A stretch of DNA of 64,000 bases from contig NZ_CP049838.1 of assembly GCF_013085465.1 (NCBI RefSeq), positions 7,068,001 through 7,132,000 on the forward strand, written 5' to 3'. Below, one piece after another: positions 35,991 to 48,554 of the stretch. Below the pieces are notes generated by a model that saw only the letters and a program-made list of their open reading frames with translations, had not been told where the DNA came from and did no database searches. The first letter of the stretch is position 1. The number at the start of each line of letters is the position of its first letter. Origin of the DNA: Streptomyces asoensis. GTDB taxonomy: Bacteria > Actinomycetota > Actinomycetes > Streptomycetales > Streptomycetaceae. A program made the translations under genes and the position numbers.

Positions 35991-36092
35991 GTTCCCCCCT
36001 GGAACGTGGTGCTGTGAGGGGGCATCATGCCGTATCCGCGTTGATCGTTTCCGGGCACGCCAGATCTGCGGGTCAGTGTGGGGCATGATCGG

Positions 36093-36104
36093 CTGAAACG
36101 TCAA
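36093..36104 (-). promoter_or_regulatory. Possible promoter element of the lipoprotein gene
   Basis: TTGACG (read on the minus strand from 36104 to 36099) is a good -35 hexamer within the 127-base spacer upstream of the lipoprotein ATG. No convincing -10 stands at the ideal distance, so the call is tentative. Confidence 0.3.
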
Positions 36105-36117
36105 GCAAGGTTGAGGT

Positions 36118-36396: not shown

Positions 36397-36413
36397 GGGG
36401 TGATCCTCTCGCG

Positions 36414-36454
36414 CGAAGGCCCGGCCGTCACAGGGGTGAACGGCCGGGCCTTCG
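36414..36454. terminator. Perfect 15-bp hairpin, twin of the one at 35519
   Basis: CGAAGGCCCGGCCGT pairs fully with ACGGCCGGGCCTTCG across an 11-base loop. Its left arm repeats the bases at 35519-35532. The two hairpins bracket a two-gene cassette. Confidence 0.7.
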
Positions 36455-36501
36455 TGTTGCCGAGCGGTCCCGGCGCGTAGCCCACAGTGTGTCAGGCCGA
36501 G

Positions 36502-36681
36502 TCAGTCGTCGTCCTCACCTACGGCAACCTCAACCTGCTTGATCTTCCCGCTCGTCGACAGCTCAGCACGCACGGGATTCGAGCCGGGCGCGCCGACCTT
36601 CCGTGCGTTCTCGACGAACTCGGCGAGCTCGTCCAACGTGAGGTCTTTGTCTTCCCCGGTGAAGCGCAGCGCAGCAGGCAT
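36502..36681 (-). CDS. Small acidic protein, 59 residues
   Basis: Reads MPAALRFTGEDKDLTLDELAEF and ends in VEVAVGEDDD. A pattern of strand, LTLDELAEFVENARKVG helix, strand is visible. A GTG at about 36699 is an alternative start. No family recognised. Confidence 0.55.
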   Translation of the reverse strand: MPAALRFTGEDKDLTLDELAEFVENARKVGAPGSNPVRAELSTSGKIKQVEVAVGEDDD

Positions 36682-36702
36682 GCCCTCATGGTGGCGCACG
36701 AA

Positions 36703-36733
36703 GGCCCCGCCGGGGGAGTGGTGCGGCGGGGCC
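36703..36733 (-). terminator. Terminator after the Spd-like cluster
   Basis: GGCCCCGCC and GGCGGGGCC form a 9-bp stem with a 13-base loop, 17 bases beyond the stop codon at 36750, ending the membrane-gene operon. Confidence 0.65.
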
Positions 36734-36749
36734 GGGCTGGTACGGAGGT

Positions 36750-37370
36750 CTACTTCACGGGCTGGTGGCGGTGCTCGTCGGACAGATCGTAGATGATCAG
36801 GCCCCCGTTGGTGCGCTGGACCCGCACCCCCTTCCCACCCTCCTCCCCTCCACCGTTGTTGCCGTTGTCGTTGTCGCCTGACCTGCAACAACAACCGACT
36901 CCATGCGGGTCGGCGGGAGAGGGAGAGGGGGCGGCCGGGATGGCCTCCTTACGTACGGCCGGCCCGTTCCCCTCTCGCGTGCGGCTGGCCTTCCAGGGGA
37001 TGCCCGCCTCCTCGAGGAGCGCCTTCACGACCTTGGTGTCGGAGAGCTTCAGGTCGTCGCGGAGGCGGGTGAGGAGGACTCCCTTGTCGTCACCGATGAG
37101 ACGGCGGAGGGCGGCGCCAACGTCCGGCTGCTCCCTCTCGACAGCTGCGCCCTCGTCGGGGTCGCGGCGGTCCCGGATCCACCCGCGGGTCTTCTGCCAG
37201 ACGCAGGTCCCGATGATCCCGACGATCACGTAGGCGATCTCGGGCCACACGGCGACGATCCCCCACACGGCGCCGAGCAGGACGAGGACGGCCTTCGCTG
37301 TCCGCTCGCTCATCCCGCCCGGCTCCCCCGCCTCCTCCGGATCGGTCCCGCCGGCCTCCTCGGTGCTCAC
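36750..37370 (-). CDS. Membrane protein with winged-helix-like C-terminus (Spd-cluster)
   Basis: This 206-residue protein has a hydrophobic pair near residues 25-58 (AVLVLLGAVWGIVAVW; IAYVIVGIIGTCVW), then a cytoplasmic domain with LLTRLRDDLKLSDTKVVKALLEEAGIP that looks like a winged helix, and an Asn/Gly/Asp low-complexity stretch near 165-185. GTG 37370 overlaps the previous stop as GTGA. The mix of membrane anchor and DNA-binding-like domain recalls proteins of Streptomyces conjugative plasmids. Confidence 0.55.
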   Translation of the reverse strand: MSTEEAGGTDPEEAGEPGGMSERTAKAVLVLLGAVWGIVAVWPEIAYVIVGIIGTCVWQKTRGWIRDRRDPDEGAAVEREQPDVGAALRRLIGDDKGVLLTRLRDDLKLSDTKVVKALLEEAGIPWKASRTREGNGPAVRKEAIPAAPSPSPADPHGVGCCCRSGDNDNGNNGGGEEGGKGVRVQRTNGGLIIYDLSDEHRHQPVK

Positions 37371-37873
37371 CCGAACACCCCCGTGAAGCCGGTCCCGGCC
37401 AGGTTCACGCCCGAGCCGAGCGGGATCGCAGCCACGCCGGCCACGTTCCCGGACAGAGCCACGAGGATCCCGGCCAGCGCGCCGAGCAGGATCTTCGACT
37501 TGGACTGCTGCGGCCCCCACTTCAGCAGAGCGATCAGCACGACCGTCAGCAGGAACACGATGACGTAGCCGCCGTCGGTGAGGACCAGCTGGTGCGCGCG
37601 GGTGACGTCGGGGGCGTTGCCGCCGATGCCGTAGACGAGCGCGCCGTAGCCGATGACGTTGCCTGCCCACAGGGCGAGCCAGGTGACGCCGCCGAGGAGG
37701 GAGAACGCGCCGAGGGCGGCGAGGGCGGCGAGCATCCCGTACAGCTTGGCGAGGACGTACGGCACGATGGCGCCCCACCGGCGTTTCTCCTTCATCCACC
37801 AGCGCATCAGGAACAGCAGGTCGATGCCGACGCCGAGGGCGACTCCCCCGAGGTTGATGGCCATGTACGGCAT
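37367..37873 (-). CDS. Multi-spanning membrane protein (Spd-cluster)
   Basis: This 168-residue protein has about five hydrophobic segments (for example AKLYGMLAALAALGAFSLL, GGYVIVFLLTVVLIALL and the Gly-rich C-terminus). It lies in an operon of four coupled membrane-protein genes. No precise family; general resemblance to spread proteins of Streptomyces plasmids. Confidence 0.55.
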   Translation of the reverse strand: MPYMAINLGGVALGVGIDLLFLMRWWMKEKRRWGAIVPYVLAKLYGMLAALAALGAFSLLGGVTWLALWAGNVIGYGALVYGIGGNAPDVTRAHQLVLTDGGYVIVFLLTVVLIALLKWGPQQSKSKILLGALAGILVALSGNVAGVAAIPLGSGVNLAGTGFTGVFG

Positions 37874-37874
37874 T

Positions 37875-38033
37875 TCAGTGGCTCCAGATCGTGGCGATGT
37901 AGGCGATGGGGAGTGTGAGGAGGATGACGGTGCAGGCGGCGGGGCCGAGGTAGGCGAGTGGGGCGCGGCGGGGGGCTATCGCGTGGAGGCCGACGGCGGC
38001 GAGGACCGCAGCCGTCGGCCAGAGGAGGCCCAT
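37875..38033 (-). CDS. Small two-helix membrane protein
   Basis: This 52-residue protein (MGLLWPTAAVLAAVGLHAI, then a second helix near 30-48) starts at ATG 38033, overlapping the stop of the upstream gene by one base (TGATG). It is similar in type to the tiny SpdA-like membrane proteins of Streptomyces plasmids. Function unproven. Confidence 0.6.
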   Translation of the reverse strand: MGLLWPTAAVLAAVGLHAIAPRRAPLAYLGPAACTVILLTLPIAYIATIWSH

Positions 38034-38875
38034 CACGCGCTCCGGAGGTAGCGGCCGACGGTGTCCGGGCGGGCGTTGGCGTCGGCGACCTTGTGGACGT
38101 ACCGCAGGACCGCGTCCGGATCGGTGATCCCGGAATCCCGGGCAGTCCGGACCGCGTCCTTCACGGTCATCGGCCCGGCGAGGGTCGGGAGCGGGCTGGC
38201 GGATCCGGACTGCGGATCGGATCCGCAGTCCGGATCCGCGGATCCGCGGTCCGGATCGCTGGTCAGGGAGCGCCGCTCGGCGTCGAGGACGGCCTCGCCG
38301 CGCTGCAACTCCCGCTGGATCGGGATCATCGCGAGCTTCCCGTCGAGGGCTGCGCGCCGCTTCGCCACCCACTGCTGCGTCCGCGAGTCGAGGGGTCGGG
38401 CGTGCACACGCATGGCGATGGTCCAGCCGCCCTTGGCGAGCGCGGACACGGCCGCGCCGACCGCGCCGACGACCATCTGGTCGAAGACGTAGCCGTGCGC
38501 AAAGACTGCGGCCATGGACACGGCGAGGGCCCAGCGCCCGGCTCTGCGGGGGGCCTTGGCGCGCTCAGGGTCGGAGCGCAGCAGCCACTCGACGGCCATG
38601 CACATGATCCATGTGAGGTCGAAGGCGACGCCGGCCGCGTAGGCGATGACCGCGACGACGGACATGGCGAGGAGTCCGCCGATCGCGCTGGTGCTCCAGA
38701 CGAGGGCGACGGTGACGAGGAGGGTGGCGCCGATGGTGACGGCGGTGCGGACGATCTGGTCCCAGTCGCGGGGCGGGGCAGGGACCTCGATGGTCTCGGT
38801 GTCGAGGACCATCTCGGTGACGCCGTCGACGGTGTGGGGTACGAGGCGGGTCCGCTCGATGCTGCGGGTCTTCAC
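38033..38875 (-). CDS. SpdB-like plasmid spread protein homologue
   Basis: This 280-residue protein has four hydrophobic segments (near residues 43-62, 66-90, 113-135 and 137-155), then a basic helical domain (TQQWVAKRRAALDGKLAMIP), a low-complexity Asp/Pro/Ser linker, and a C-terminal HTH-like end (DAVLRYVHKVADANARPDTVGRYL). This plan, membrane bundle plus cytoplasmic HTH, resembles DUF2637/SpdB-type proteins that help Streptomyces plasmids spread between hyphal compartments. No TraB/FtsK-like translocase is present in the window. Confidence 0.5.
   Translation of the reverse strand: MKTRSIERTRLVPHTVDGVTEMVLDTETIEVPAPPRDWDQIVRTAVTIGATLLVTVALVWSTSAIGGLLAMSVVAVIAYAAGVAFDLTWIMCMAVEWLLRSDPERAKAPRRAGRWALAVSMAAVFAHGYVFDQMVVGAVGAAVSALAKGGWTIAMRVHARPLDSRTQQWVAKRRAALDGKLAMIPIQRELQRGEAVLDAERRSLTSDPDRGSADPDCGSDPQSGSASPLPTLAGPMTVKDAVRTARDSGITDPDAVLRYVHKVADANARPDTVGRYLRSA
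38201..38237. repeat. Perfect 37-bp palindrome in the SpdB-like gene
   Basis: Two 18-base arms (beginning GGATCCGGACTGC) are exact reverse complements around a single central G at 38219. Further GGATCCG/CCGCGG repeats continue to about 38258. It encodes the low-complexity linker. It could be a cis-acting DNA site rather than only coding sequence. Confidence 0.8.
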
Positions 38876-38901
38876 GGTGCTCCTCCGGGAGCGGCATGGG
38901 A

Positions 38902-38945
38902 CCGGCCTCCCGCGGCCGTGGGGGAACGGAATCGCGGGAGGCCGG
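38902..38945 (-). terminator. Hairpin between small genes and the SpdB-like gene
   Basis: CCGGCCTCCCGCG and CGCGGGAGGCCGG form a perfect 13-bp stem with an 18-base loop, just upstream of the SpdB-like start codon and 17 bases after the stop of the 63-residue gene. Confidence 0.7.
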
Positions 38946-38961
38946 CCGATCTGGGGGTGGG

Positions 38962-39153
38962 TCAGGGGGCGTAGAGGCCGCGGCGGCGGCGCTCGTTCTC
39001 GCGGTCGCGCTGCTCCCAGGCGTCGGCTGCGGCTCCGGCGCGGCGGGCTCCGCTGGTCTTGGAGCGGAAGAACCGCCCGACCGACCCGGTGACGCTGGTT
39101 CCTGCGGCCGGGTAGGCGCGGGTGGACTGCTCGCGGGTGCGGCGCCAGGCCAT
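38962..39153 (-). CDS. Small basic protein, 63 residues
   Basis: Reads MAWRRTREQSTRAYPAAG and ends in a highly charged helix (DAWEQRDRENERRRRG). It overlaps its upstream neighbour by one base (TGATG). Proteins of this shape occur beside spread genes in Streptomyces integrative elements; function unknown. Confidence 0.55.
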   Translation of the reverse strand: MAWRRTREQSTRAYPAAGTSVTGSVGRFFRSKTSGARRAGAAADAWEQRDRENERRRRGLYAP

Positions 39154-39323
39154 CAGATGCACCGTCCTGGGAGGACGCCTTGCCGCTCGCCGGGCCCGCC
39201 TTGCGCCTGCTGCTCGCGGGTGACGCCTTGCTGCGTGGCGTAGTCGTCGGCGGCGCGGGCGAGGAGCTGTTCCGGGGTGGCGTTCGCGTCGTCGTGGTGG
39301 GGGCTCGGGGTCTGCTCGCTCAT
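39153..39323 (-). CDS. Small protein, 56 residues
   Basis: This polar protein (MSEQTPSPHHDDANATPEQ) has one helix with LLARAADDYATQQGVTREQQ. Coupled on both sides by short overlaps. No family recognised. Confidence 0.5.
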   Translation of the reverse strand: MSEQTPSPHHDDANATPEQLLARAADDYATQQGVTREQQAQGGPGERQGVLPGRCI

Positions 39324-39607
39324 GCGGTCACCGCCGGACGGCTCGCGCTGGCGAAGACGCAGATGGTGTCGAGGAACGTGGGGTCGGCGAGGCGGACCAC
39401 GCGGAGCGGCTGGCCGTCGCGGTCGGTGGTCTCCCACTCCTCGACGCCGCCGCCGGTGGCGCGTTCCACGGCGATCAACGCCTCGGTGGCCGGGACGGTG
39501 TCGGTTCCCCAGACGGTGCCGTAGTTGTCGAAGTTGACGACGGTGCCGGGCGGGAGGCCGGCGAAGGGGCTGGGCTGCTTGGGGGGCTGGTCGGTACGGT
39601 TGGCCAT
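39320..39607 (-). CDS. Unknown protein, 95 residues
   Basis: This protein starts MANRTDQPPKQPSPFAGLPP and contains a beta-rich core (GTVVNFDNYGTVWGTDT, then EEWETTDRDGQPLRVVRLAD). It is the first gene of a leftward group that begins opposite the HTH gene at 39774. AAGGCAGG serves as ribosome site. Function unknown. Confidence 0.55.
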   Translation of the reverse strand: MANRTDQPPKQPSPFAGLPPGTVVNFDNYGTVWGTDTVPATEALIAVERATGGGVEEWETTDRDGQPLRVVRLADPTFLDTICVFASASRPAVTA

Positions 39608-39643
39608 GAGGGCCTGCCTTTTCGTGATGGTTGAGGTGGGCCT

Positions 39644-39686
39644 GGCCCCGTCCCGGAGCGCCAACTCAGCGGGACGGGGCCGTTTT
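39644..39686 (+). terminator. Strong hairpin with T-tract in divergent spacer
   Basis: GGCCCCGTCCCG pairs with CGGGACGGGGCC across a 14-base loop and is followed on the plus strand by GTTTT. It lies in the leader of the minus-strand group, upstream of the plus-strand HTH gene, and could insulate that gene or act as an attenuator for the opposite strand. Confidence 0.6.
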
Positions 39687-39716
39687 GCATCAGTAGCGCG
39701 GTGCCACTTCCAGCAC

Positions 39717-39735
39717 TGTAGGGGAACCCCCTACA
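39717..39735. promoter_or_regulatory. Operator-like palindrome TGTAGGGG-N3-CCCCTACA
   Basis: A perfect 8-bp dyad with a 3-base spacer overlaps a -10-like TACACT (39732-39737). It sits just upstream of the HTH gene at 39774 and is its likely autoregulatory site. Confidence 0.6.
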
Positions 39736-39773
39736 CTTTGGCCAGTGGCCCGCCCAAGGAGAAGGGGCCGGGT

Positions 39774-40067
39774 GTGACCGAGGAGGCGCAGCGGGTGTTC
39801 GATGCCATCGACGCTGTCAAGGCGATCGCCGACCCGACCGAGAGAGCGCGAGCCCTCGGCGAGGTGCTGAAGGCTCTGCCGGGGCAGAACAAGGCGCTGA
39901 AGGAGGCGCGGCAGGCGGCCGTGAGTGAGCTGCTCGCGCGGCCGGGTGCGTCGCTGCGCACGGTCGGTGCAGAGTTGAACATCAGCTTCAGCACGGTGCA
40001 GGACATCGTGAAGGGCTACTCGGGCTCGGGGAAGAACCGGCCGAAGACGGAGGCGTCGGATGGATGA
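39774..40067 (+). CDS. Small HTH regulator, plus strand
   Basis: This 97-residue protein has an acidic helical N-terminus (RVFDAIDAVKAIADPTERARAL) and a C-terminal HTH (LLARPGASLRTVGAELNISFSTVQDIV). It starts at GTG 39774 behind AAGGAGAAGGGG. An 11-codon leader ORF (GTG 39745, VARPRRRGRV) ends in a TGA that overlaps this GTG, so translation may be coupled to a short leader. It is isolated between two leftward operons. Confidence 0.7.
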   Translation: MTEEAQRVFDAIDAVKAIADPTERARALGEVLKALPGQNKALKEARQAAVSELLARPGASLRTVGAELNISFSTVQDIVKGYSGSGKNRPKTEASDG

Positions 40068-40169
40068 GCTGGTGCGGTCGCTGCATGCCACGCGTCCGAC
40101 CGAGGGGTAGCTCGCGGGCAGGGCCTGGGCGTACGGTCGGTCTGCACCATGATGGGGGGCGCCCATCGA

Positions 40170-40202
40170 CGGCCCGCCGATCCTCACGGGGACGGCGGGC
40201 CG
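40170..40202. terminator. Bidirectional terminator between convergent genes
   Basis: CGGCCCGCCG and CGGCGGGCCG form a 10-bp stem with a 13-base loop between the HTH gene (ending 40067) and the minus-strand gene ending at 40211. Confidence 0.7.
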
Positions 40203-40210
40203 CGTGCTGC

Positions 40211-40417
40211 TCACGGCCGCACGGTCTCCTCGTAGGCGTAGTCCATCCTGAGGCAGTCGCCTTGCAGGCTCATGCCGCGCAGGAGGTAGTGGGCAACAGC
40301 GCCCGGATCGTGGTCCAGCGGCCGACTGACGCGTCCTCCCGCTGAGGCCGGGGCAGCTTGGTCCCAGCTGAGTCCGTCGAGCGGACCACCGTAGAGAGTG
40401 ATGCGAAGGGCGCGCAT
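40211..40417 (-). CDS. Small unknown protein, 68 residues
   Basis: Begins MRALRITLYGGPLDGLSWDQ, a start motif (LYGGPLDG) seen in many actinophage small proteins of unknown function, then VAHYLLRGMSLQGDCLRMDYAYE. GAGGCAC precedes the ATG 40417. It appears to be its own transcription unit between two terminators. Confidence 0.6.
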   Translation of the reverse strand: MRALRITLYGGPLDGLSWDQAAPASAGGRVSRPLDHDPGAVAHYLLRGMSLQGDCLRMDYAYEETVRP

Positions 40418-40470
40418 AGGGCCGTGCCTCCCACTGAGGAGTTCTGGGCCCCGCGCCTGCAAGAAGTCTA

Positions 40471-40494
40471 GGGCGCGGCACTGACACCGCGCCC
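40471..40494 (-). terminator. Terminator after the 237-residue gene
   Basis: GGGCGCGG and CCGCGCCC form an 8-bp stem with an 8-base loop, starting 5 bases beyond the stop codon at 40500. Confidence 0.65.
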
Positions 40495-40499
40495 CAGCC

Positions 40500-41213
40500 C
40501 TACGCTGCGATCACTCCCTCAGCCCAGACCACCCCGCACCCCGTGCAGTGCGCGAGCGGCGGCCGGCCCTCCCCGCCGTGGACGTCGATCGCCCCACCAC
40601 AGCCGTGCCGCTGCTCCAGCGTCCGCCGCTGCGCCGCAATGTCCAGCGCCCGCTCGACTCGCTCGGCGGCGCCGGCCGCGACCACACCGATCTGCTCCAG
40701 CTGCACCACCGTCAACGCGCGGAACGGGCCGCCCTTCCCCTCGATCCGGGCCAGCAGCCACAGCGCGGTGTACGAGGCGGAGCGGCGGCGGCCGGTCCAC
40801 CTCCAGCGGCGCGGGTCCGCCGCGTCGGCGCGTGCGAGTTGGTTGCGGCGTTCCCGGTCGGCGGCCGGCCAGTTGCTGGGGGCGAACGGCATGGGCGCGC
40901 GCTGTACGTCGGCGGCGATCTGGTCGGCGGTTCCGTGGAGGGAGGCCTCGACGGCACGCATGGTGTCGAGGATGTGGAGTCGGACGGGGACGGGGCGGAC
41001 GCCGATCTGGATCGGGTCGCGTTCCTGGCTGCGGAGGTGGGCGGCGTGGGCGCGGTCGTAGTTGAACTCGGCGCGGTCGGCATCTTCGAGGCGGGCGAGG
41101 TAGCCGCGGAGGCCGAGGCCGAACGCGCCGAGTTGGGTGGGCTGGCCTACGGCTTCGTGGAGGTCCGCCCAATGCAGGGCGACGGTGCGAAGGTTCGTGG
41201 CGGCGGTGGTCAT
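40500..41213 (-). CDS. Unknown protein with C-terminal zinc ribbon
   Basis: This 237-residue protein is helical, with LHWADLHEAVGQPTQLGAFG at the start, a basic centre and a C-terminal CGGAIDVHGGEGRPP...CTGCG ribbon (two Cys pairs with a His nearby). Similar proteins are common in Streptomyces prophages and integrative elements; function unknown. Confidence 0.6.
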   Translation of the reverse strand: MTTAATNLRTVALHWADLHEAVGQPTQLGAFGLGLRGYLARLEDADRAEFNYDRAHAAHLRSQERDPIQIGVRPVPVRLHILDTMRAVEASLHGTADQIAADVQRAPMPFAPSNWPAADRERRNQLARADAADPRRWRWTGRRRSASYTALWLLARIEGKGGPFRALTVVQLEQIGVVAAGAAERVERALDIAAQRRTLEQRHGCGGAIDVHGGEGRPPLAHCTGCGVVWAEGVIAA

Positions 41214-41310
41214 CGTGACTCCCGTGGTGCGGTGGGGCGGTACGGTGATCGCACCGGATGGGGCGTGCCTGGCCTGGGGAGGTCGAGTGGGCGCGCCCCT
41301 TCGTCGTTGC

Positions 41311-41472
41311 TCAGTCGTCGGCGGAGATCAGGCTGGCGATGCCGAGCCACGTGAGGACGGTGGCGATAACGCCGACGATCCCGGCGAGCTGGCCGTCCGC
41401 AGTGAGGCCGTAGGTGACGCCTCCGGAGACGGCGCCGAGGATGACGCCGAGGATGAAGGTGGGCACGGTCAC
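41311..41472 (-). CDS. Tiny membrane protein, 53 residues
   Basis: Two hydrophobic segments (VPTFILGVILGAVSGGVTYG and GIVGVIATVLTWLGIASLI) make up nearly the whole protein. GTG 41472 overlaps the upstream stop (GTGA). Function unknown. Confidence 0.55.
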   Translation of the reverse strand: MTVPTFILGVILGAVSGGVTYGLTADGQLAGIVGVIATVLTWLGIASLISADD

Positions 41473-41741
41473 TGCTCCTTGGTCTGGTCGGTGCCGGGCT
41501 GCTGCTCCGGCGGGTGGATCGCGTGGTGCAGCTCGACGAGCCGCCGGTCCCACCAGCGGGACAGGCTCGTGCCGAGCGGCGGCGGCCCGGCCTTCACCCA
41601 CCGCTCGTAGAGGGCGATGACGCGGGTGACGTCCTGCTCGGCGGATCGGTGGAGCGCGGCGAACACGCGGGTGGTCTTCTCGGCCCGGTCGCTTCGGTCG
41701 CTGCCGGGCCGGGCAGGCCGAGGGCGTCGCACATCGAGCAC
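41469..41741 (-). CDS. Small helical protein overlapping the next gene in another frame
   Basis: This 90-residue frame reads EKTTRVFAALHRSAEQDVTRVIALYERWVKAG and ends RWWDRRLVELHHAIHPPEQQ. Its start codon (GTG 41741) has no ribosome site and overlaps the preceding ORF by 148 bases in the -1 frame. The two may be one gene joined by frameshifting, or one may carry a sequence error. Confidence 0.5.
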   Translation of the reverse strand: MLDVRRPRPARPGSDRSDRAEKTTRVFAALHRSAEQDVTRVIALYERWVKAGPPPLGTSLSRWWDRRLVELHHAIHPPEQQPGTDQTKEQ

Positions 41742-41875
41742 AGCGCGAAGGACGTGCCCTCGCCTCGGGCGATGCGGCGTGCCTCGCTGTGGACTTGGCG
41801 GGCCCGCTCGACGACGGCGTACAGCTGGTCGAGGGCGTCGCTGGTGATGCTGTCGACGGTGTGGCGGTCGGTCAC
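41594..41875 (-). CDS. Small helical protein (DALDQLY type), possibly frameshifted
   Basis: Begins MTDRHTVDSITSDALDQLYAVVERARQ, a pattern common in Streptomyces phage and plasmid proteins of unknown function, with CSMC near residue 46. After about residue 63 the frame turns into a low-complexity Pro/Ser tail, while the -1 frame (ending at 41469) keeps a normal helical composition. The real product may switch frames near 41690. The ATG overlaps the next upstream gene. Confidence 0.5.
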   Translation of the reverse strand: MTDRHTVDSITSDALDQLYAVVERARQVHSEARRIARGEGTSFALCSMCDALGLPGPAATEATGPRRPPACSPRSTDPPSRTSPASSPSTSGG

Positions 41876-42252
41876 TGGCCGTTCCTGTCGTGGAGGCCGA
41901 GGGCGTGGCGCACCCCGGGGAAGCGGTCGTTGGCGTAGCTCATGCGCTGGATCTGGAAGTCGACCGGCAGACCTGTGCGGAACCGGGCGAGTTCGCTAAT
42001 CGCGGCGCAGATCAGGCCCCACCTGCCGTCCTCGTGGGCCGGTCGGTCCTGGGGAAACAGGGCATCGAACTCGTCGTCAGGCAGGATCAGCCGGACGTCG
42101 ACGTCCCGCCACGTCTTGCCGATGGCAGCCGTGCCGACGAGGTAGGGGACGTGGCCGAACGCGGCGTCGATCTCGCGTCCGAACGCGTCGAGGTGGAGGG
42201 CGGCGGGCATGCCGACGCCGACCATGGGGCGGGGTGCGGGTTGGTTGGTCAT
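41872..42252 (-). CDS. Minimal nucleotidyltransferase-like protein
   Basis: This 126-residue protein has a Pol-beta superfamily signature: VGTAAIGKTWRDVDVRLIL, with G40-T41 and Asp50-x-Asp52, plus a third acidic residue Asp98 in LPVDFQIQRM. Minimal NTases of this size usually modify proteins or RNA, or act as antitoxins; target unknown. ATG 42252 overlaps the previous stop by 4 bases. No HEPN partner with a convincing motif is adjacent. Confidence 0.65.
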   Translation of the reverse strand: MTNQPAPRPMVGVGMPAALHLDAFGREIDAAFGHVPYLVGTAAIGKTWRDVDVRLILPDDEFDALFPQDRPAHEDGRWGLICAAISELARFRTGLPVDFQIQRMSYANDRFPGVRHALGLHDRNGQ

Positions 42253-42638
42253 GCTGCGGTCCCGTGGTCGAAGCCTGCGGTGATCGCCTCGAACTGGGCG
42301 CGGGCTGCCGGGTCGAGGCGGTAGGTGTCGCGGCGCGGCAAGACCGGGCGGGTGCAGCCGGGGCCGTGGACCTGGCCGTCGGAGTGGAGCCAGAACGAGC
42401 AGCACGGCACGAGCGGCTCGACCTGCTCGCCACGCTTCAGCCTCGCCGCGCGCTGCGCCTCGGCCCGCTTCCGGTGGTGCGCCCGTCGGGCGAGCGCGTC
42501 GACGCACAGCAGACCGGGCGCGATGCAGGCAACAAGGGCAGCGATCCACCATGCGGAGGTGACGGCGAGCCAGGCGGCGCCGGCCAGCTCGAGGACGGCG
42601 ATGGCGCGGCAGGTGCGGGCGATGGCGAGGTTGGTCAC
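42249..42638 (-). CDS. Membrane protein with Cys/His C-terminal motif
   Basis: This 129-residue protein has two hydrophobic helices near residues 12-48, then a basic helix and a VPCCSFWLHSDGQVHGPGCTR motif that may bind metal. This motif is typical of small actinophage and Streptomyces proteins of unknown role. Coupled on both sides by 4-base overlaps. Confidence 0.55.
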   Translation of the reverse strand: MTNLAIARTCRAIAVLELAGAAWLAVTSAWWIAALVACIAPGLLCVDALARRAHHRKRAEAQRAARLKRGEQVEPLVPCCSFWLHSDGQVHGPGCTRPVLPRRDTYRLDPAARAQFEAITAGFDHGTAA

Positions 42639-42886
42639 TGCTGCTCGCCTCCTTCCAGCCGGAGGGGCGGGACGTCGAGCGCGGCCCGGACCATGCAGTC
42701 CTTCGCCTCCAGGAGCTTCCGGAGTCCGGCGGTGAGCTCGGGTCCGTCGGGGAGGTGGTCGACCATCTCGTGTGCGAGGGCGTGGAATGGGGCGCTGAAC
42801 CAGGCGAGGTTGGCGGGCAGGTGGTCGTACTCGAAGTACCGGAGGATGTGGGTGGTGCTGGGGTGGCGGTTGCTCTTCTCGGTCAT
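42635..42886 (-). CDS. Acb2/Tad1 hairpin-domain-like protein (candidate anti-CBASS/Thoeris sponge)
   Basis: This 83-residue protein reads ILRYFEYDHLPANLAWFSAP, then LAHEMVDHLPDGPELTAGL and RKLLEAKDCMVRAAL. The order of a Phe/Tyr-His-Leu-Pro start, two long helices, and an LEAKDCxVRAAL end resembles the small phage proteins now grouped with Acb2 and Tad1, which bind cyclic di/trinucleotides or gcADPR and so silence CBASS or Thoeris defence. Confidence in gene reality is high, in the function moderate: I judge by remembered family pattern only. It lies in an early accessory operon, the expected place. Confidence 0.5.
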   Translation of the reverse strand: MTEKSNRHPSTTHILRYFEYDHLPANLAWFSAPFHALAHEMVDHLPDGPELTAGLRKLLEAKDCMVRAALDVPPLRLEGGEQQ

Positions 42887-43140
42887 GCGGCTTCCTTGTA
42901 GGTCGAGGGCCCTGTGTGGCCCGTGTGGGCGCGAACTCTGCGTGCGGCGTAGATCCGGGCTCGCGTCCGCCCGTAGCCCCAGGAGGGGTGGACGACGCCG
43001 CGCCACAGGCCGGTTGCGGCCCACCCGCCGAGGAGGGCGAGGGTGAGCAGCGCGATGGTGCCGACGACGCCGAAGACCACGGTCCAGCCGAGGAGCCACC
43101 AGCCGAGGGTGAGCGCGGTGTCGATGGCCTCCCCGATCAC
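42883..43140 (-). CDS. Small membrane protein, 85 residues
   Basis: Two hydrophobic helices near residues 10-48 (LGWWLLGWTVVFGVVGTIALL and a Gly/Ala-rich one) are followed by a basic tail. GTG 43140 overlaps the upstream stop. Function unknown. Confidence 0.55.
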   Translation of the reverse strand: MIGEAIDTALTLGWWLLGWTVVFGVVGTIALLTLALLGGWAATGLWRGVVHPSWGYGRTRARIYAARRVRAHTGHTGPSTYKEAA

Positions 43141-43550
43141 GGCCGCTCCCCGGGGGTGTGCTCGGCCTCGGCGACGTATGACGTGACCTTGCGGACGAGG
43201 CGCAGCGGCCCGCTGTTTCCGTCGGCGAGGCTCTCGTACAGGCGGCGGGCGTCGTCTCGGTTCGGGTAGGCCGGGCCCCAGTCCTCCCACTTGCCGGACC
43301 TTCGCTGCGCCTGGACGATCCAGCCGGTGTCGGTGGGGATCGGTGGGTGGCGGAGCTGGAGGAGTTCGGCGGGCAGGACGTGGCGGCCGACGTACACGGC
43401 GACCGCGAGGGTGAGTTCGGCGACGAGGTCGTCGGTGCCGCCGAGGCAGTGGCGGACGGGGACGGTGGACACCTTGTCGGCGATGACGGCGGCGAGGGGC
43501 GCGAGTTCGTTGAGCTGCTCGGTGGTGAGGGTGCTGGTCGGGTCAGCCAC
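43137..43550 (-). CDS. Unknown protein, 137 residues
   Basis: The N-terminal helical part (TEQLNELAPLAAVIADKVST) is followed by WIVQAQRRSGKWEDWGPAYP and EDARRLYESLADG-like sequence near the C-terminus, a small alpha/beta domain found in many Streptomyces phage proteins. Function unknown. Overlaps the next gene by 8 bases. Confidence 0.55.
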   Translation of the reverse strand: MADPTSTLTTEQLNELAPLAAVIADKVSTVPVRHCLGGTDDLVAELTLAVAVYVGRHVLPAELLQLRHPPIPTDTGWIVQAQRRSGKWEDWGPAYPNRDDARRLYESLADGNSGPLRLVRKVTSYVAEAEHTPGERP

Positions 43551-44490
43551 GGCTGGTCTCCTCGTCGCTCAGGACGTCCCGGCTGCACGCGGTGCAGATC
43601 CCGCCGTCCTCCAGCTCCTCGGCCGTGACTGGGGTCCAGATGTCTCCGGCCGGGTTCGGGGCGCAGCGCAGGCAGTGCAGCTCTGTGCGGGTGGTGGGGA
43701 CGTAGGCGACGACACGGTCGGCCTCTCGTGTCTGGGTGTCGGGCTGCTCCCCGACGGCGGGCCGCTCGTCCGTCGGCTCGTCAGGGAAGAGGGCGTTCAA
43801 CTCGTCCACGTCTGCCTGAGCCGCCGCCAGTTCCTCGGCGGTGAACCGGCCCTCGCAGCAGTGGTCGCCTGCCGAGCAGGGGCTCGGGATGGAGGCGAGC
43901 CGGCCGCACGGGGCCTGCGCCTCGGTGGGCTTGAAGCCGCCTCGCTCGACCGCTCGCCGGACGGCCCGCGCCTGGTGCTCCCAGTACGACTGGTCGTCTG
44001 TGTCGAGGTTCTCCCAGCCCACGCCGTCTGGCATGAACCGCTGGTACAGCCAGGCGGGCAGCGAGTCGAGCGTCTCGGCGGGCTGTTCCTCGGCGGCCAC
44101 ACGGCTCGGACCGTCGGCGGGCGCGGACAGCGCGGCGTCAACGGCCTGCACCGTCGGGCACGGCCAGGGCATCCACCAGCCGACCGGCTGCGGCTGCCGC
44201 TCCTCCTGGGTGCAGGTCTCGCAGTACTGGCCACCCTCGCCCTCGATGGGCTGGTGCAGTGCGGCGATCGCTTCCCGGAGCAGCGTGGCCCGGTCGGCGG
44301 ACACGACAGCAGACGGCGAGACGGCCAGCACCGCGTCTCGGGCCGCGTCCATCGCAGCCTCCAAGCCGTCGTCCCAGCCGGACTGGTAGTGCTGCGATCC
44401 GTCGGGCGACGGGGTCTTGAGGGCGAAGATCGCTCGGGTGACGTGCTTCGCCAGCTCCTCGGCGGCCTGCGGGTTGGTGGTGTGGTTCAT
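43543..44490 (-). CDS. Cys-rich accessory protein, 315 residues
   Basis: This protein has an N-terminal helix region (SGWDDGLEAAMDAARDAVLAV), CETCTQEE near residue 90, a central segment with CSAGDHCCEGRF and LHCLRCAPN, and a C-terminal CTACSRD. The spaced Cys pairs suggest several zinc sites. It is a composite of short modules common to Streptomyces prophages; no enzymatic role is seen. A hairpin at 44516-44544 separates it from the methyltransferase. Confidence 0.6.
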   Translation of the reverse strand: MNHTTNPQAAEELAKHVTRAIFALKTPSPDGSQHYQSGWDDGLEAAMDAARDAVLAVSPSAVVSADRATLLREAIAALHQPIEGEGGQYCETCTQEERQPQPVGWWMPWPCPTVQAVDAALSAPADGPSRVAAEEQPAETLDSLPAWLYQRFMPDGVGWENLDTDDQSYWEHQARAVRRAVERGGFKPTEAQAPCGRLASIPSPCSAGDHCCEGRFTAEELAAAQADVDELNALFPDEPTDERPAVGEQPDTQTREADRVVAYVPTTRTELHCLRCAPNPAGDIWTPVTAEELEDGGICTACSRDVLSDEETSRG

Positions 44491-44515
44491 CGGTCCTCCG
44501 TAGGGTGGGCTGGCC

Positions 44516-44544
44516 GGCCGCCGGTACTTCCGATACCGGCGGCC
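44516..44544 (-). terminator. Terminator after the DNA methyltransferase
   Basis: GGCCGCCGGTA and TACCGGCGGCC form a perfect 11-bp stem with a 7-base loop, 16 bases beyond the methyltransferase stop. Confidence 0.75.
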
Positions 44545-44560
44545 GGTCCTGCGTGGGTGG

Positions 44561-45199
44561 TCAGGCCGCCTGGTCGGCGTGCAGCGCCAGGAACTGCCGG
44601 CCGATCCACTCGGAGTAGGCGGGCGGGACGGCTTGGCGGGCCTCGGTCTTGTTCATCCACGTGCAGCCCATCGCGTCCGCATAGGCGCGCTCGCCCTTGT
44701 GCATGAACGGCAGCAGCCCCTTGTGGTGCCAGCACGGCGGGAGCAGCTCACCGCCACCGCCCCACGAGGTTTCGAAGCTGCGGTGCCGGCGGACGTTCAG
44801 GCCGAACTGCGAGCCGCACAGCAGGTAGTCCGGGCGCAGCGGCGCTTCGGGCACGTTCTCGATGACCCGCGGGCGGCCGGACTTGTCCATCAGCTTCCGG
44901 CCCGGGGTGAGGAGGTCCTCGTGGTCGGCCTGGTCGCCGCGCCACTGGGTGACGTTGGCGAACGCCTGGCAGGGCCAAGAGGCGTGCACGAGGGCGTACC
45001 GCTCGACTTCGCCGGTGGTGATGATCCGGTCGAGGTACTCCAGCGCGTCGGCCTGGTGGAACTCGAACGGGTAATTCGGCATCGGGTTGACGTCCACGCC
45101 GACGACGTCGTATCCGGCGAGCCAGTAGCCCCACGACAATCCGCCGGCGCCGCAGCACAGGTCGAGGACGGTCAGCCCGTTCGGGGTACGCCCGGTCAT
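44561..45199 (-). CDS. DNA (cytosine-5) methyltransferase, short phage type
   Basis: This 212-residue enzyme has motif I VLDLCCGAGGLSWGYWLAGY, the catalytic motif IV WPCQAFANV and the ENVPEA motif VI (PRVIENVPEAPL). The target-recognition part is short, as in orphan phage methylases. It likely protects phage DNA from host restriction, as no cognate nuclease is nearby. GTG/ATG 45199 overlaps the upstream stop by 4 bases. Confidence 0.85.
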   Translation of the reverse strand: MTGRTPNGLTVLDLCCGAGGLSWGYWLAGYDVVGVDVNPMPNYPFEFHQADALEYLDRIITTGEVERYALVHASWPCQAFANVTQWRGDQADHEDLLTPGRKLMDKSGRPRVIENVPEAPLRPDYLLCGSQFGLNVRRHRSFETSWGGGGELLPPCWHHKGLLPFMHKGERAYADAMGCTWMNKTEARQAVPPAYSEWIGRQFLALHADQAA

Positions 45200-45714
45200 G
45201 CGGGCCTGCTGTCGGCCGCACCAGACACGGCAGACGCGGCGGGGCGGCGGTCGGCGAGCATCCGCAGCCAGGACGCGACCGCCGTGCCGTGGTTGCCGCC
45301 GAAGAACGACACCTCGGGCGGCTCCGGGTCGGCCATGTCGGCGACCTCGTGCAGGACTTCGGATGCGTGCTGCGCCAGGGCGAGGGCCGCGTCGTCTCGC
45401 GGCGCTTCCACACCGGCGGTGGCCTGCTGGAGGAGGTAGAGCGCGCCGAGGGCTGCCGTGCCGGGGTCGTCGAGGTCGTAGCAGAGCGCGGCCAGGGCGG
45501 CGCGGGCTTCGACGGCCGGGCCCTCCAGCTCGGTGATGCGGGCGCGGAGCCTGCGGACCTCGGTGAGCAGCGCGGGCACGTCGGTGTCGGTGAGCTGACC
45601 GAAGTCGGGATGCGCGTTGGGGTCGATGGTGGCGGTGCGCTCGTACAGGTGGGCGGCACGGGTCTCGATTTCGTCGAGCTGCTGCTCGGTGAGCGGGATG
45701 GTCTGGTCGGTCAT
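45196..45714 (-). CDS. Helical protein, 172 residues (LTEQQLDEIETRA type)
   Basis: Begins MTDQTIPLTEQQLDEIETRA, a start seen in many Streptomyces phage and plasmid accessory proteins. A coiled coil (VRRLRARITELEGPAVEARAAL) is followed by a less regular C-terminal part with VSFFGGNHGTAVASWLRML. Function unknown. Coupled to the methyltransferase. Confidence 0.6.
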   Translation of the reverse strand: MTDQTIPLTEQQLDEIETRAAHLYERTATIDPNAHPDFGQLTDTDVPALLTEVRRLRARITELEGPAVEARAALAALCYDLDDPGTAALGALYLLQQATAGVEAPRDDAALALAQHASEVLHEVADMADPEPPEVSFFGGNHGTAVASWLRMLADRRPAASAVSGAADSRPA

Positions 45715-45787
45715 GTGGATTTCCTTTCGCGCGGGCCCTGGTAGAACCGGGTCCTCGGGTTGGTGTGGGGCGGTATGGGCTGGCCGG

Positions 45788-46411
45788 TCAGGCGTGGCCG
45801 AACTCGATGTCGGCCAGTTCGGCGCGTGCTTCGGCGACGGTGGTGCGGCTCATGGCCAGGTCGTAGATGAGGCCGACGGCGTGGTATTCGCCGCTGTCGG
45901 TGGCGTCGCGGAGGCGGGAGGCGATGTCGGAGATGAGGTCGAAGACGTCGCTGTCGGAGTCGACGGGTTCGTCTTCTTCCTCGTCGTCGGCTTCGTCCGG
46001 TGCGGTGTCCTCGTGCACGGCGGCGATCACGGAGGCTCGCAGTTCCTCGGGCATGCCGGGGTGGAACGCGAAGTGGATCCGCACTCCGGTCACATCGGCG
46101 TGGGTGATGTCGACGTGCTCGGCGTCGGGGATCAGGCCGTCGGCGCCGAGGTTGATGGCCCACTCGGAGATGTCGGCCGCGCCTTCGATCAGCGTGTGGA
46201 TCGCCGTGGCCGGCGTGTTGAGGTCGCGGCATTCGAGTGCCTCGTCCCACGTGAGTCCGTCGTCTCCCGTGTCGGTGCGTGTGCTTTCGATGTGGGCGTC
46301 GAGCATTGCGGCGAGGGTGGCGTTGGGGTGTTGGTGGCCGCGGTGTGCGGAGAGCTGTCGGGCTGCTTCGGTGCGGAGGTCGTCGTCGGTGTAGGGGCGG
46401 TTGGTGGTCAT
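45788..46411 (-). CDS. Acidic unknown protein, 207 residues
   Basis: An N-terminal helix region (DDLRTEAARQLSAHRG), a middle with VDITHADVTGVRIHFAFHPG, an acidic low-complexity stretch (DEADDEEEDEPVDSDSD, near 135-152) and a C-terminal helical part. Its ATG overlaps the helicase stop by 4 bases. Acidic proteins of this sort may mimic DNA, but there is no direct evidence. Confidence 0.55.
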   Translation of the reverse strand: MTTNRPYTDDDLRTEAARQLSAHRGHQHPNATLAAMLDAHIESTRTDTGDDGLTWDEALECRDLNTPATAIHTLIEGAADISEWAINLGADGLIPDAEHVDITHADVTGVRIHFAFHPGMPEELRASVIAAVHEDTAPDEADDEEEDEPVDSDSDVFDLISDIASRLRDATDSGEYHAVGLIYDLAMSRTTVAEARAELADIEFGHA

Positions 46412-48234
46412 GCGGTGTGCCTCGTTTCGGTGTCGGTGTCGGGGTGTGTGGGTCGGTCGGGGTGGCTGCCGGTGGCGGGGTCGCAGCCGAGGTGGGTGTC
46501 GTATCCGCGGTTGGCCCAGTCGGTGGTCATGGGTCGGGTGCAGATGGTGCAGAGGGGTTCTTCTGAGGCTGGCCGTTCCGGGGTTCCCTCCCCGTTCCCC
46601 CTCTTCGAGGGGGGAACGTGGGGAACGGGGGGCGTTCCGGGTGTTTCCGGGGGCGTTCCGGGAAACGTCTGACCTGGGGTTTTGTGTGTTCCGGGGTGCG
46701 TTCCGGGAAACGTTTCCGGGAACGCTGTTTGGGAGGGGGTCGGGGAACGCTCCGGGGAAACGTCGATACCTGGCATTTCGGACCGTGCTTTGCGGCGTCG
46801 GATGGCGTCAGCGATCTTGTTATTACCGCCCGGTACGCGGAGCTCGGCGAGCTTGTCCCGCGCAGCCCGGTTGCCCGCGTCGTTGGGCAGGCCGGCGCGG
46901 TCGAGGGCGGCGATGATGTGCTCGACGGTGCCGGGGATGGCGGCCATGCCGTGCGGCTCGCCGGGCTCGGTCTCCCACGTCATGACGACGTGGCGGGTGC
47001 CGCCGACGGCCCAGTTGTCGCCGTCGCGCTGCGCCTGGCGGAGCAGGGTGAACTGTTCGGGGCCGATGCCGGTGCGGGTGTGGGTCCGCTTGAGGGCGAG
47101 GGTGCCGCCGCCCTGCGCGGTGAGTTCCCACACGTGGTCGACGTCCTGCGTTTTGGCGGAGGAGCCTCGGCCGCCGCGGTCCTTGTCCTTGCCGAAGTGG
47201 TCGAGGCGCACACTCGCGATGCGGTCGCGCTTGAGGGGCAGCAGCGTGTGCCGGTAGAGGGACAGCCAGGTGTCGGCGTCGTTCTCGGGGCCGCCGATGA
47301 ACCGGCTGACGGTGTCGATGACGACGAGTTCGGCGCCGGTGGCTTTCACCAGGGCGAGGAGGTCGGCGCCGCCGCCCGCGGTGTCGAGGGGGCGGATCGG
47401 CGGGAACGACGCGTACCGGAGTTCGCCCATGTTCCGCGGCCCGGCGCCGAACGACAGGAACCGTTCCTGGACCTGCTCCTGACCGTTCTCCGCGTCGAGG
47501 TAGAGGATGCGCACCGGGTCCTGCGGGGCGTCGCCGAGGAAGGGCTGGCCGGTGGCCATGCGCCACATCCACTCCTGGCAGAACAGGGACTTGCCGGCCT
47601 TGCCGTCGCCGACGAGGGTGATCTGCTGGCCCGGTCCCATGAGCTTGCCGGGCAGGAGCTGGATCGCGCCGAAGTCGGTGGCGAAGAACGTGCCCCAGTT
47701 GAGGAGGCTGGCGACGAGGTGGGAGGGGCCGCGGCCGGTGTTCTCGCGGAGGGTCTCGGCCTGCTGGAAGTCGGCGACGAGGGCGGCGAGTTCGTCGCCG
47801 TCTGCCTTCCGGTCGATCGCCGTCTTGAGGAGGGTGGAGTGGGCGTCGTAGCGGCGCTGCCGTGCGGTCTCGGCGATGCGCTCGGCGAACGCGGCGGCCA
47901 TGCCGGGGGTGATGGTGTCGGTGCCGAGCCGGTAGACGAGGGCGCCGCCTTCGACGCGGTGGAGCTGGCCCTGCTTCTCGAGTTCGGCGCGGACGAGGGC
48001 GGGGTGGCAGTGCTGGCCGGTGGCGTGCAGGCCCGCAGCGGTGTCCCAGATGAGCTGGTGGGCGGGCTTGTAAAGGTCGTCGCGGGTGATGAGGAGCGCG
48101 CACTCGTCGTAGGCCTGCTTCGAGTGCATGACGATGCCGACGACGTACTCTTCGGCCTCCGCGTCGTGGGGGCTGGTGCGATTGAGGCCGTCGTGGTCCG
48201 CCTGGTCTGGCGCAAGGTGGCGGACGTTGCTCAC
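46408..48234 (-). CDS. Replicative helicase-like ATPase (DnaB-N plus RecA fold)
   Basis: This 608-residue protein has a DnaB-like N-terminal helical part (DAEAEEYVVGIVMHSKQAYDE) and a RecA-type ATPase with Walker A LVGDGKAGKS and Walker B-like ELVVIDTVSRFIGG; RepA-type single-domain helicases share this. A C-terminal Pro/Thr/Gly low-complexity part and a CTICTRP...C zinc-like end follow. GTG 48234 is the chosen start. It probably loads or drives phage replication. No separate primase was recognised. Confidence 0.78.
   Translation of the reverse strand: MSNVRHLAPDQADHDGLNRTSPHDAEAEEYVVGIVMHSKQAYDECALLITRDDLYKPAHQLIWDTAAGLHATGQHCHPALVRAELEKQGQLHRVEGGALVYRLGTDTITPGMAAAFAERIAETARQRRYDAHSTLLKTAIDRKADGDELAALVADFQQAETLRENTGRGPSHLVASLLNWGTFFATDFGAIQLLPGKLMGPGQQITLVGDGKAGKSLFCQEWMWRMATGQPFLGDAPQDPVRILYLDAENGQEQVQERFLSFGAGPRNMGELRYASFPPIRPLDTAGGGADLLALVKATGAELVVIDTVSRFIGGPENDADTWLSLYRHTLLPLKRDRIASVRLDHFGKDKDRGGRGSSAKTQDVDHVWELTAQGGGTLALKRTHTRTGIGPEQFTLLRQAQRDGDNWAVGGTRHVVMTWETEPGEPHGMAAIPGTVEHIIAALDRAGLPNDAGNRAARDKLAELRVPGGNNKIADAIRRRKARSEMPGIDVSPERSPTPSQTAFPETFPGTHPGTHKTPGQTFPGTPPETPGTPPVPHVPPSKRGNGEGTPERPASEEPLCTICTRPMTTDWANRGYDTHLGCDPATGSHPDRPTHPDTDTETRHTA
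46654..46713. repeat. Iteron-like repeats CGTTCCGGGAAACGT within helicase gene
   Basis: The 15-mer occurs at 46654-46668 and 46699-46713, with imperfect copies nearby (inverted at about 46711-46724 and a variant near 46749-46763). It encodes repeated Thr-Phe-Pro-Gly-Thr units. Position in the replication gene raises the possibility of an origin, but a coding-repeat explanation is sufficient. Confidence 0.55.
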
Positions 48235-48245
48235 GGGCGGTCTCC

Positions 48246-48554
48246 TCAAAACAGGGGCTGGGTCGGGCACTTGTGGGCGGTGAGGTGCTGGTGCGGGCAG
48301 TCCGGCGGGTGCCGGCCGGTCGTCCAGCGCAGTCGCAGGGCCCGGTGTGGGAGGCGAGGCAGGCACCAGACGAGGTCGTTGGGGCTGCTGTCCGCGAGGG
48401 CGGCGCGGTAGGGGCGTGGCTCGTCGGGGGGTGGGAGCGGCACGCTGGCTTTGAGGGCTGCGGTGTGGCCGACCCACTGGACGAGGAGGGGTGCCCGGCA
48501 CGCGGGGCAGCGCGAGGTGATGCTGTTGCTGCCCCGCGGCCGGGCCCCGGTCAC
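48246..48554 (-). CDS. Small zinc-finger-like protein, 102 residues
   Basis: CPACRAPLLVQWVGH near residues 16-30 and DCPHQHLTAHKC near the end provide two Cys/His clusters, typical of small actinophage zinc proteins. Coupled to the DUF2303 gene by GTGA. It precedes the helicase gene. Confidence 0.6.
   Translation of the reverse strand: MTGARPRGSNSITSRCPACRAPLLVQWVGHTAALKASVPLPPPDEPRPYRAALADSSPNDLVWCLPRLPHRALRLRWTTGRHPPDCPHQHLTAHKCPTQPLF

What the first reader, a model, noticed from the sequence alone, without database searches (positions are those of the whole stretch)
42635..42886. Candidate Acb2/Tad1-like sponge against CBASS or Thoeris signalling
The 83-residue protein has the compact two-helix plan and LRKLLEAKDCxVRAAL ending that I associate with the Acb2/Tad1 hairpin family, and it lies in a phage early accessory operon. 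If confirmed, it would be an anti-defence gene in a Streptomyces prophage, which are little studied in this respect.
Basis: inference. Interest (0 to 1): 0.75.

Follow-up and report, generated by a model that had tools for sequence, protein, structure and literature searches.

The report
Acb2-related phage hairpin protein, probable sponge
A small gene in what is probably a Streptomyces prophage belongs to a very large, unnamed family of phage proteins that is distantly related to Acb2, a protein phages use to soak up bacterial alarm molecules, so it is probably a counter-defence protein, though its target molecule is unknown.

Summary
The 83-aa gene is real (minus strand, 42886-42635, 4-base overlaps with both neighbours) and lies in a prophage at about 5.49-59.16 kb that splits a host Mg-chelatase (ComM-like) gene. 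It is not an Acb2 or Tad1 by the usual test: no Pfam, NCBIfam or PADLOC match. It belongs to a large unnamed family (PHROG 5120/1761; 3,724 proteins at E<=1e-3; 369 of 50,697 phage records). That family is remotely related to the Acb2/Tad1 hairpin: PHROG profiles cross-hit both ways (best 5.8e-5 and 2.4e-4), profile-profile comparison of deep alignments gives 86-91%, 0 of 200 column shuffles reach the score, and the score to typical Acb2 nearly equals that of the proven T4 Acb2 (Vs.4). The family hairpin also shares a fused N-terminal module with Tad2-like sponges (63 of 120 listed). Of the T4 Acb2 contacts I could place, the cGAMP-contacting lysine is replaced by serine; an aromatic and, in an uncertain register, an arginine are kept, as are most packing positions. 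Verdict: a new branch of the Acb2/Tad1 hairpin superfamily, most likely a nucleotide-signal sponge with an altered pocket.

The parts
42635..42886 (-). 83-aa hairpin-family gene (P0001; PHROG 5120/1761)
42749..42796 (-). first helix segment of the hairpin, S31-P46, aligned to Acb2's first long helix
   Evidence: hhalign register; coordinates; helix itself inferred, no structure
42674..42739 (-). second helix segment E50-D71 (ELTAGLRKLLEAKDCMVRAALD), aligned to Acb2 EKSLALTKLEEAVMWANAAIA
   Evidence: coordinates; register after C64 uncertain
42883..43290 (-). upstream neighbour, 135-aa ORF with a hydrophobic stretch (by eye), overlaps by ATGA
   Evidence: no family found
42249..42638 (-). downstream neighbour, 129-aa ORF with a hydrophobic N-terminal part (by eye), overlaps by GTGA
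   Evidence: no significant family
44561..45199 (-). DNA methyltransferase-like gene of the same early region (phrog_363)
   Evidence: E 2.2e-31; Pfam DNA_methylase below its cut-off
46408..48501 (-). DnaB-N plus AAA_25 replication protein
5489..59159 (.). prophage between two copies of a 14-bp sequence (GGCTTCGATCTGGC at 5489 and 59146) that lie where a Mg-chelatase (ComM-like) gene is split; serine recombinase at 5529-7160 (+)
   Evidence: shared stretches of 16 and 15 bases elsewhere in the flanks do not lie at the split and were taken as chance

Best explanation
The protein is a prophage-encoded counter-defence protein of a separate, large branch of the Acb2/Tad1 hairpin superfamily. Made early in infection or on induction, it most likely assembles into a small oligomer of helical hairpins, as Acb2 does. 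It would hold a defence-made nucleotide second messenger between subunits, so that the abortive-infection effector is not switched on. Its pocket differs from that of Acb2, so the ligand is probably a different or differently contacted nucleotide. Shown here: the gene, the prophage, the family, the remote homology and the domain sharing with Tad2-like proteins. Inferred: hairpin fold, oligomer, ligand binding and anti-defence effect.
For: Independent PHROG profiles cross-hit. 32 of 69 family members match phrog_1454 (best E 5.8e-5, limit 0.1), which 45 of 45 PF24729 proteins tested also match. 11 of 45 Acb2-hairpin proteins match the family's phrog_1761 (best 2.4e-4, limit 0.01). hhalign of deep alignments gives probability 86% (66 Acb2-type representatives) and 91% (30 typical ones), scores 30.7 and 34.9, against best shuffled scores of 17.3 and 19.2 in 200 column shuffles each. 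With the selection motifs masked the score still exceeds all 200 shuffles (24.3 v 16.1; 21.5 v 19.2). Among 22 ORF clusters of the fetched loci, the family scored 32.5 against typical Acb2, the T4 Vs.4 cluster 33.1, and the best of the others (the Acb2 cluster itself aside) 19.1. Domain sharing: the N-terminal module of a Vibrio phage family member is, in the 120 best hits listed of 589, joined to Tad2-like PF11195 in 63, PF24729 in 1 and the family hairpin in 6, one of them a near-copy of the query. A second module is joined to Tad2-like in 4 and to the family hairpin in 2 of 120 listed of 5,705, one of the 2 a near-copy of the query. Two unrelated phages carry a Tad2-like gene within 1 kb of the family gene. 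The gene sits among differing neighbours in very different phages, as accessory genes do.
Against: No curated family model calls it. A first, shallower profile comparison gave only 36%. There is no direct match to the T4 Acb2 cluster (hhalign scores 9.4 and 9.3). Of the T4 Vs.4 cGAMP contacts reported in PMC10097602 (Y8, H11, K23, R79, F82), K23 corresponds to serine in 89% of the family and F82 to leucine in 68%, and Acb2's conserved tryptophan is absent. A77, needed for hexamer formation, corresponds to F/M/L in the ungapped register. 56% of members have a proline in the first helix segment. The module partners also include families of unknown function (32 PF21825, 7 PF13876, 6 PF26760 of 120), so fusion is not proof. 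Only 4 of 50 family-bearing records (of 157 family loci then held) hold a Tad2-like gene at all. Several of the 22 control clusters look like non-coding ORFs, which weakens that control.
Confidence: 0.6

Rival explanations
1. Same ancestry and fold, but not a nucleotide sponge: the hairpin has become a protein-binding adaptor or inhibitor with an unrelated phage function.
For: Part of the cGAMP-contacting set of Acb2 is lost, while a new strongly conserved set (H22, R56, K57, K62, D63, C64, R67) has appeared. The domain is fused to several different N-terminal pieces, including a P-loop-like one in Erwinia jumbo phages.
Against: The modules it shares with Tad2-like proteins point to signal sequestration. 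Polar conserved residues on a small hairpin suit ligand binding as well as protein binding.
Confidence: 0.2
2. A functional Acb2 of the classical kind, sequestering 3'3'-cGAMP-type and cA3-type signals as a hexamer.
For: Profile similarity to typical Acb2 nearly equal to that of T4 Vs.4. Aromatic Y20, R67, G54 and A61 line up with Vs.4 Y8, R79, A66 and A73 in the ungapped register.
Against: K23, F82 and the tryptophan are not kept. PF24729 threshold not reached. A CD-NTase (SMODS, PF18144) was found in 15 of 101 genomes of the genus but not in this one.
Confidence: 0.1
3. No relation to Acb2: two short amphipathic helices with a K-L-x-E-A stretch arose independently, and the gene is an ordinary conserved phage accessory gene of another function.
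For: The aligned domain is short (36 to about 60 columns) and the identity in the alignments is 21-22%. Single-sequence searches find nothing. The masked test clears the shuffles only narrowly with the full Acb2 set (21.5 v 19.2).
Against: Two independent PHROG cross-hits, 0 of 200 shuffles reaching the score in each of four tests, and no other ORF cluster of the same loci close to the score.
Confidence: 0.1

Closest known systems
Acb2 (anti-CBASS 2; T4 Vs.4, p26; PF24729 Acb2_Tad1_hairpin; phrog_1454/717)
   Same: Small phage protein with remote but significant profile homology over the hairpin; shared F-x-Y start, E-K/L-S/T turn, K-L-x-E-A core, leucine and small residues at the L29, A66 and A73 positions.
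   Different: Below the Pfam threshold; Acb2's tryptophan after KLEEA-x-M/F and the K/R at the K23 position absent; own conserved H-L-P and L-R-K-L-L-E-A-K-D-C-x-V-R; ligand and oligomer unknown.
Tad1 (Thoeris anti-defence 1)
   Same: Its C-terminal helices are related to the Acb2 hairpin: the Acb2 profile matches Tad1 chains at E 1.4e-4 over about 30 residues.
   Different: The review PMC12043709 describes an N-terminal four-stranded sheet in Tad1 (passages); the 83-aa protein has no room for it.
Tad2 (Thoeris anti-defence 2; PF11195 Tad2-like)
   Same: Shares the same fused N-terminal modules and, in a few phages, the gene neighbourhood with the family.
   Different: Unrelated domain; the protein itself does not match PF11195.
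Acb2 annotated in actinobacteriophages (Xandras gp101, Statler gp57)
   Same: Short phage proteins of actinobacterial hosts, named as CBASS antagonists by annotators (PMC13348362 and PMC11953737; part 1 of 2 of each text seen).
   Different: Xandras gp101 fits the canonical Acb2 profile (68.8 bits, against 2.0 bits for this family). Statler's record was not held, so gp57 is untested.

Membership tests
Acb2/Tad1 hairpin (PF24729) | Curated Pfam score over 27 bits | tested here: not met
   No match for P0001 (limits 1 and 10); 2 of 69 family members match, best E 0.11
Acb2/Tad1 hairpin (PF24729) | Statistically supported common ancestry of the hairpin | tested here: met
   PHROG cross-hits, hhalign 86-91%, shuffle and ORF-cluster controls, masked test; the shallow comparison gave 36%
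Acb2 | cGAMP-contacting residues of Vs.4 (Y8, H11, K23, R79, F82) | tested here: inconclusive
   Y8 kept as aromatic in most members, R79 kept in the ungapped register; K23 and F82 not kept; H11 cannot be placed
Acb2 | M-W (or F-W) after KLEEA-x in the Acb2 set | tested here: not met
   66 of 66 Acb2-type rows have M-W, but all save T4 were fetched with a pattern containing it; Xandras gp101 has F-W; the family has D-C
Acb2 | Hexamer of two long antiparallel helices per protomer | not testable with these tools
   Structure prediction switched off
Acb2 | Binds cyclic di- and trinucleotides and blocks CBASS | not testable with these tools
   needs biochemistry
Tad1 | N-terminal beta-sheet domain before the hairpin | tested here: not met
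   83 aa in all; the alignment to Acb2 begins at residue 11
Tad2 (PF11195) | Tad2-like domain | tested here: not met
   No Pfam match at E<=1
PHROG 5120 / 1761 | Profile match | tested here: met
   E 4.4e-31 and 2.9e-28; 69 of 69 family members match both

The most novel reading that the evidence does not exclude
PHROG 5120/1761 is a major, so far unnamed family of phage signal sponges, spread over actinobacterial, proteobacterial and jumbo phages, that binds a nucleotide signal other than those known for Acb2, through a pocket built on H22, R56, K62, D63, C64 and R67. Finding its ligand would reveal a defence signal that these phages commonly meet.
Probability: 0.3. Interest if true: 0.82.

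Novelty: new variant of a known kind. Interest (0 to 1): 0.6.

Why it matters
If the reading is right, thousands of phage genes now called hypothetical get a testable role in counter-defence. Prophages of this genus (probably Streptomyces) gain a sponge candidate that the sequence libraries miss. The altered pocket also predicts a ligand outside the set already assigned to Acb2, so a straightforward binding screen could identify a new or under-studied defence signal. No paper in the held library contains the strings PHROG 1761, 5120 or 1454. A search for Acb2, Tad1 and Streptomyces together found one review. A search for Acb2 or anti-CBASS with mycobacteriophage or actinobacteriophage found 215 papers, of which I saw 12 in the listing and read parts of three; the Acb2 annotation I could check there was canonical.

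Tried and rejected
Direct library hits: Pfam, NCBIfam, PADLOC and PDB gave nothing relevant for the protein itself. The PDB profile hit to Gp22 (8jaj, E 0.0085) covers 44 profile positions of a 529-aa protein; I treated it as chance. A paper on the phage P1 tail cites that entry (search listing only).

Occludin_ELL matches in 13 of 69 members (best 0.006) were rejected as coiled-helix noise, although one public record carries that label.

'Canonical Acb2 is missing from Actinomycetota' was considered after 0 of 396 genomes of the phylum exceeded the PF24729 cut-off. I rejected it as a general claim: Xandras gp101 has relatives in 303 phage records, 188 of them Mycobacterium.

Mutual exclusion with canonical Acb2: 0 of 50 family records (of 276 family loci held) were over the PF24729 cut-off, one weak match at E 0.009 aside. 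1 of 50 Acb2 records (of 120 loci fetched) was hit by the family profile (E 5.1e-4), and that hit lies inside the Acb2 gene itself. I did not count this as evidence for exclusion, because the expected number is small and many records are fragments.

Rows used and dropped. A1 holds P0001, 15 of the 120 listed homologues and 53 locus proteins of the 67 references printed. A2 holds T4 Vs.4 and 44 of the 78 ORFs; most of those left out have long N-terminal pieces, are fragments, or near-copies. Loci L191-L230 were not used. The deep alignments used the ORFs, reduced at 75% identity.

Conservation figures: many family rows were fetched with patterns containing KLLEAKDC, so the near-invariance there is inflated. 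Roseobacter-phage members read SLWEAKNLAVFA or KLWEAKNLAVYA. The Acb2 rows were likewise fetched with a pattern for K-x-EEA-x-MW; the masked test addresses this.

Full report
What is there. The coordinates hold an 83-residue ORF on the minus strand starting ATG at 42886 and stopping at 42635, with 4-base overlaps to the genes before and after it. The window is 7068001-7132000 of a single 10.04 Mb contig. The bases from about 5.49 to 59.16 kb are a prophage. A serine recombinase (Resolvase PF00239, Recombinase PF07508) sits at 5529-7160 on the plus strand. The ChlI domain of a Mg-chelatase (ComM-like, name recalled) is split into profile positions 1-64 at window 5312-5503 and 59-119 at 59143-59331. 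A 14-base sequence occurs at both junctions; two longer shared stretches (16 and 15 bases) elsewhere in the flanks do not lie at the split. Between the junctions lie RecE-like, Erf-like, RuvC-like, methyltransferase, DnaB/AAA, terminase, portal, minor head, tail and endolysin genes on the minus strand. The gene lies on the early side of this region.

The family. P0001 matches PHROG 5120 and 1761, both of unknown function, 3,724 database proteins and 369 of 50,697 phage records: Vibrio 99, Mycobacterium 53, Erwinia 48, Acinetobacter 43, Brevibacterium 32, Gordonia 30 and others. Of 101 genomes of the same genus, 8 including this one hold a match. In the 60 rows listed of 369 in each the gene is called hypothetical, save one record without annotation, one 'occludin homology domain protein' and one 'sliding clamp DNA polymerase'. 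Neighbours differ from phage to phage: a minor tail gene, capsid-side genes, baseplate genes, DNA polymerase and RecA-like, thymidylate synthase, topoisomerase and RNA ligase, holin. This is what an accessory gene looks like.

Relation to Acb2. No library calls the protein. I therefore built a family alignment (A1, 69 rows) and fetched genuine PF24729 proteins (A2, 45 rows including T4 Vs.4; 45 of 45 match PF24729 at E<=0.01). 32 of 69 family members reach phrog_1454, the PHROG that 45 of 45 Acb2-type rows match (best 5.8e-5, limit 0.1); the next PHROG outside the family's own reaches 0.0012 in 2 members. Conversely 11 of 45 Acb2-type rows reach phrog_1761 (best 2.4e-4, limit 0.01). hhalign of A1 against A2 gave only 36% probability. 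With deeper representatives (169 family, 66 Acb2-type, 30 of these typical) it gave 86% and 91%. Column shuffles never came near (0 of 200 twice), nor did reversed profiles (scores 14.6 and 13.8). Masking the two conserved octapeptides used to fetch sequences left a score above all 200 shuffles, by a wide margin with the typical set and by a small one with the full set. Among 22 clusters of ORFs from the same loci, only the Acb2 cluster itself, the T4 Vs.4 cluster (33.1) and the family (32.5) stood out against typical Acb2; the next was 19.1. Several of those clusters look like non-coding ORFs, so this control is weaker than a set of curated families. The family did not match the T4 cluster directly (scores 9.4 and 9.3), so the link runs through typical Acb2. 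Acb2 is itself very divergent: the A2 profile reaches the proven p26 chains only at E 0.39 and 0.66.

Residues. From PMC10097602 (passages), Vs.4 stacks cGAMP between Y8 and F82, contacts it with Y8, H11, K23 and R79, and packs its hexamer through L29, A66, A73 and A77. In the hhalign register and its ungapped continuation these correspond in P0001 to Y20 (Y8), S31 (K23), L37 (L29), G54 (A66), A61 (A73), M65 (A77), R67 (R79) and L70 (F82). Across 170 family rows the column frequencies are Y 65% with F and W beyond, S 89%, L 79%, G 93%, A 99%, mostly F/M/L, R 98% and L 68%. The aromatic, the arginine and three of four packing positions are kept (one as glycine for alanine); the lysine, the phenylalanine and A77 are not. 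The register after C64 is uncertain, since the forced alignment opens a gap there. The family has its own strongly conserved set: F18, H22, L23, E50, R56, K57, L58, E60, A61, K62, D63, C64, V66, R67, with the caution on selection given under Tried and rejected. I read this as the same scaffold with a rebuilt pocket; that is inference.

Domain and neighbourhood evidence. In Vibrio phage 1.205.O the hairpin follows an N-terminal module in a 141-aa protein, and the gene just upstream is Tad2-like. The module's best 120 hits listed (of 589) carry Tad2-like PF11195 in 63, PF21825 in 32, PF13876 in 7, PF26760 in 6 and PF24729 in 1. The remaining 11 have no Pfam domain; 6 of these end in the family hairpin, five by motif and P0129 by eye, and one of the 6 (P0123) is a near-copy of the query. 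The PF24729 label of P0201 is the database's own; my scan gave only 13.8 bits, and its likeness to Tad1 is by eye. A second module, from an IMG/VR contig, gave 4 Tad2-like and 2 family fusions (one a near-copy of the query) in 120 listed of 5,705. Tad2-like genes were found in 4 of 50 family-bearing records (of 157 family loci then held). In 3 of these 4 the gene lies within 1 kb of the family gene, two of the 3 looking like copies of one Alteromonas phage type (for the third the distance is read from the match that fetched it). These facts tie the family to signal sponges but do not prove the function.

Defence context. CD-NTases of the SMODS type occur in 15 of 101 genomes of the genus but not in this host. 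The host has five TIR-domain matches, which I did not resolve into systems.

Conclusion. The protein should not be filed as an Acb2 or Tad1. It is best described as a member of a separate, large branch of the Acb2/Tad1 hairpin superfamily and most likely works as a nucleotide-signal sponge (0.6). Its ligand is open.

Noticed in passing
window 5489-59159: The prophage is inserted in a Mg-chelatase (ComM-like) gene, with a serine recombinase just inside one end; a 14-bp sequence (GGCTTCGATCTGGC) stands at both junctions and the ChlI domain is divided between them.
   Followed up: partly
L045:4782-5207, L046, L047, L054 (jumbo phage contigs; Erwinia relatives): The family hairpin is fused behind an about 80-aa segment with a P-loop-like GPVGVGKS start, which would explain the longer PHROG 1761; only sub-threshold AAA-type Pfam matches.
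   Followed up: partly
L311:1288-1510 and P0123-P0242: A recurrent phage N-terminal module (YRGW...EGYLVEY...YISWSPK) joins Tad2-like, crAss001_48-related, PF13876, PF26760, PF24729 and family domains; its partners of unknown function may be further counter-defence domains.
   Followed up: partly
L309:1489-1731 (Brevibacterium phage 1T): A 51-base tandem duplication annotated inside the gene repeats LPDGPEKSTALRKLLE; rows for phages 4T and AGM11 carry the same repeat label, those for AGM6 and AGM16 do not.
   Followed up: no
L299, L300, L301, L308 (Schitoviridae of marine roseobacters): A divergent subgroup with LWEAKNLAVFA (or LWEAKNLAVYA) in place of LLEAKDCMVRA, near thymidylate synthase genes and, in two, a metallophosphoesterase or exonuclease gene.
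   Followed up: no
window 44561-45199: A DNA methyltransferase-like gene (phrog_363, E 2.2e-31) in the same early region, another possible counter-defence gene.
   Followed up: no
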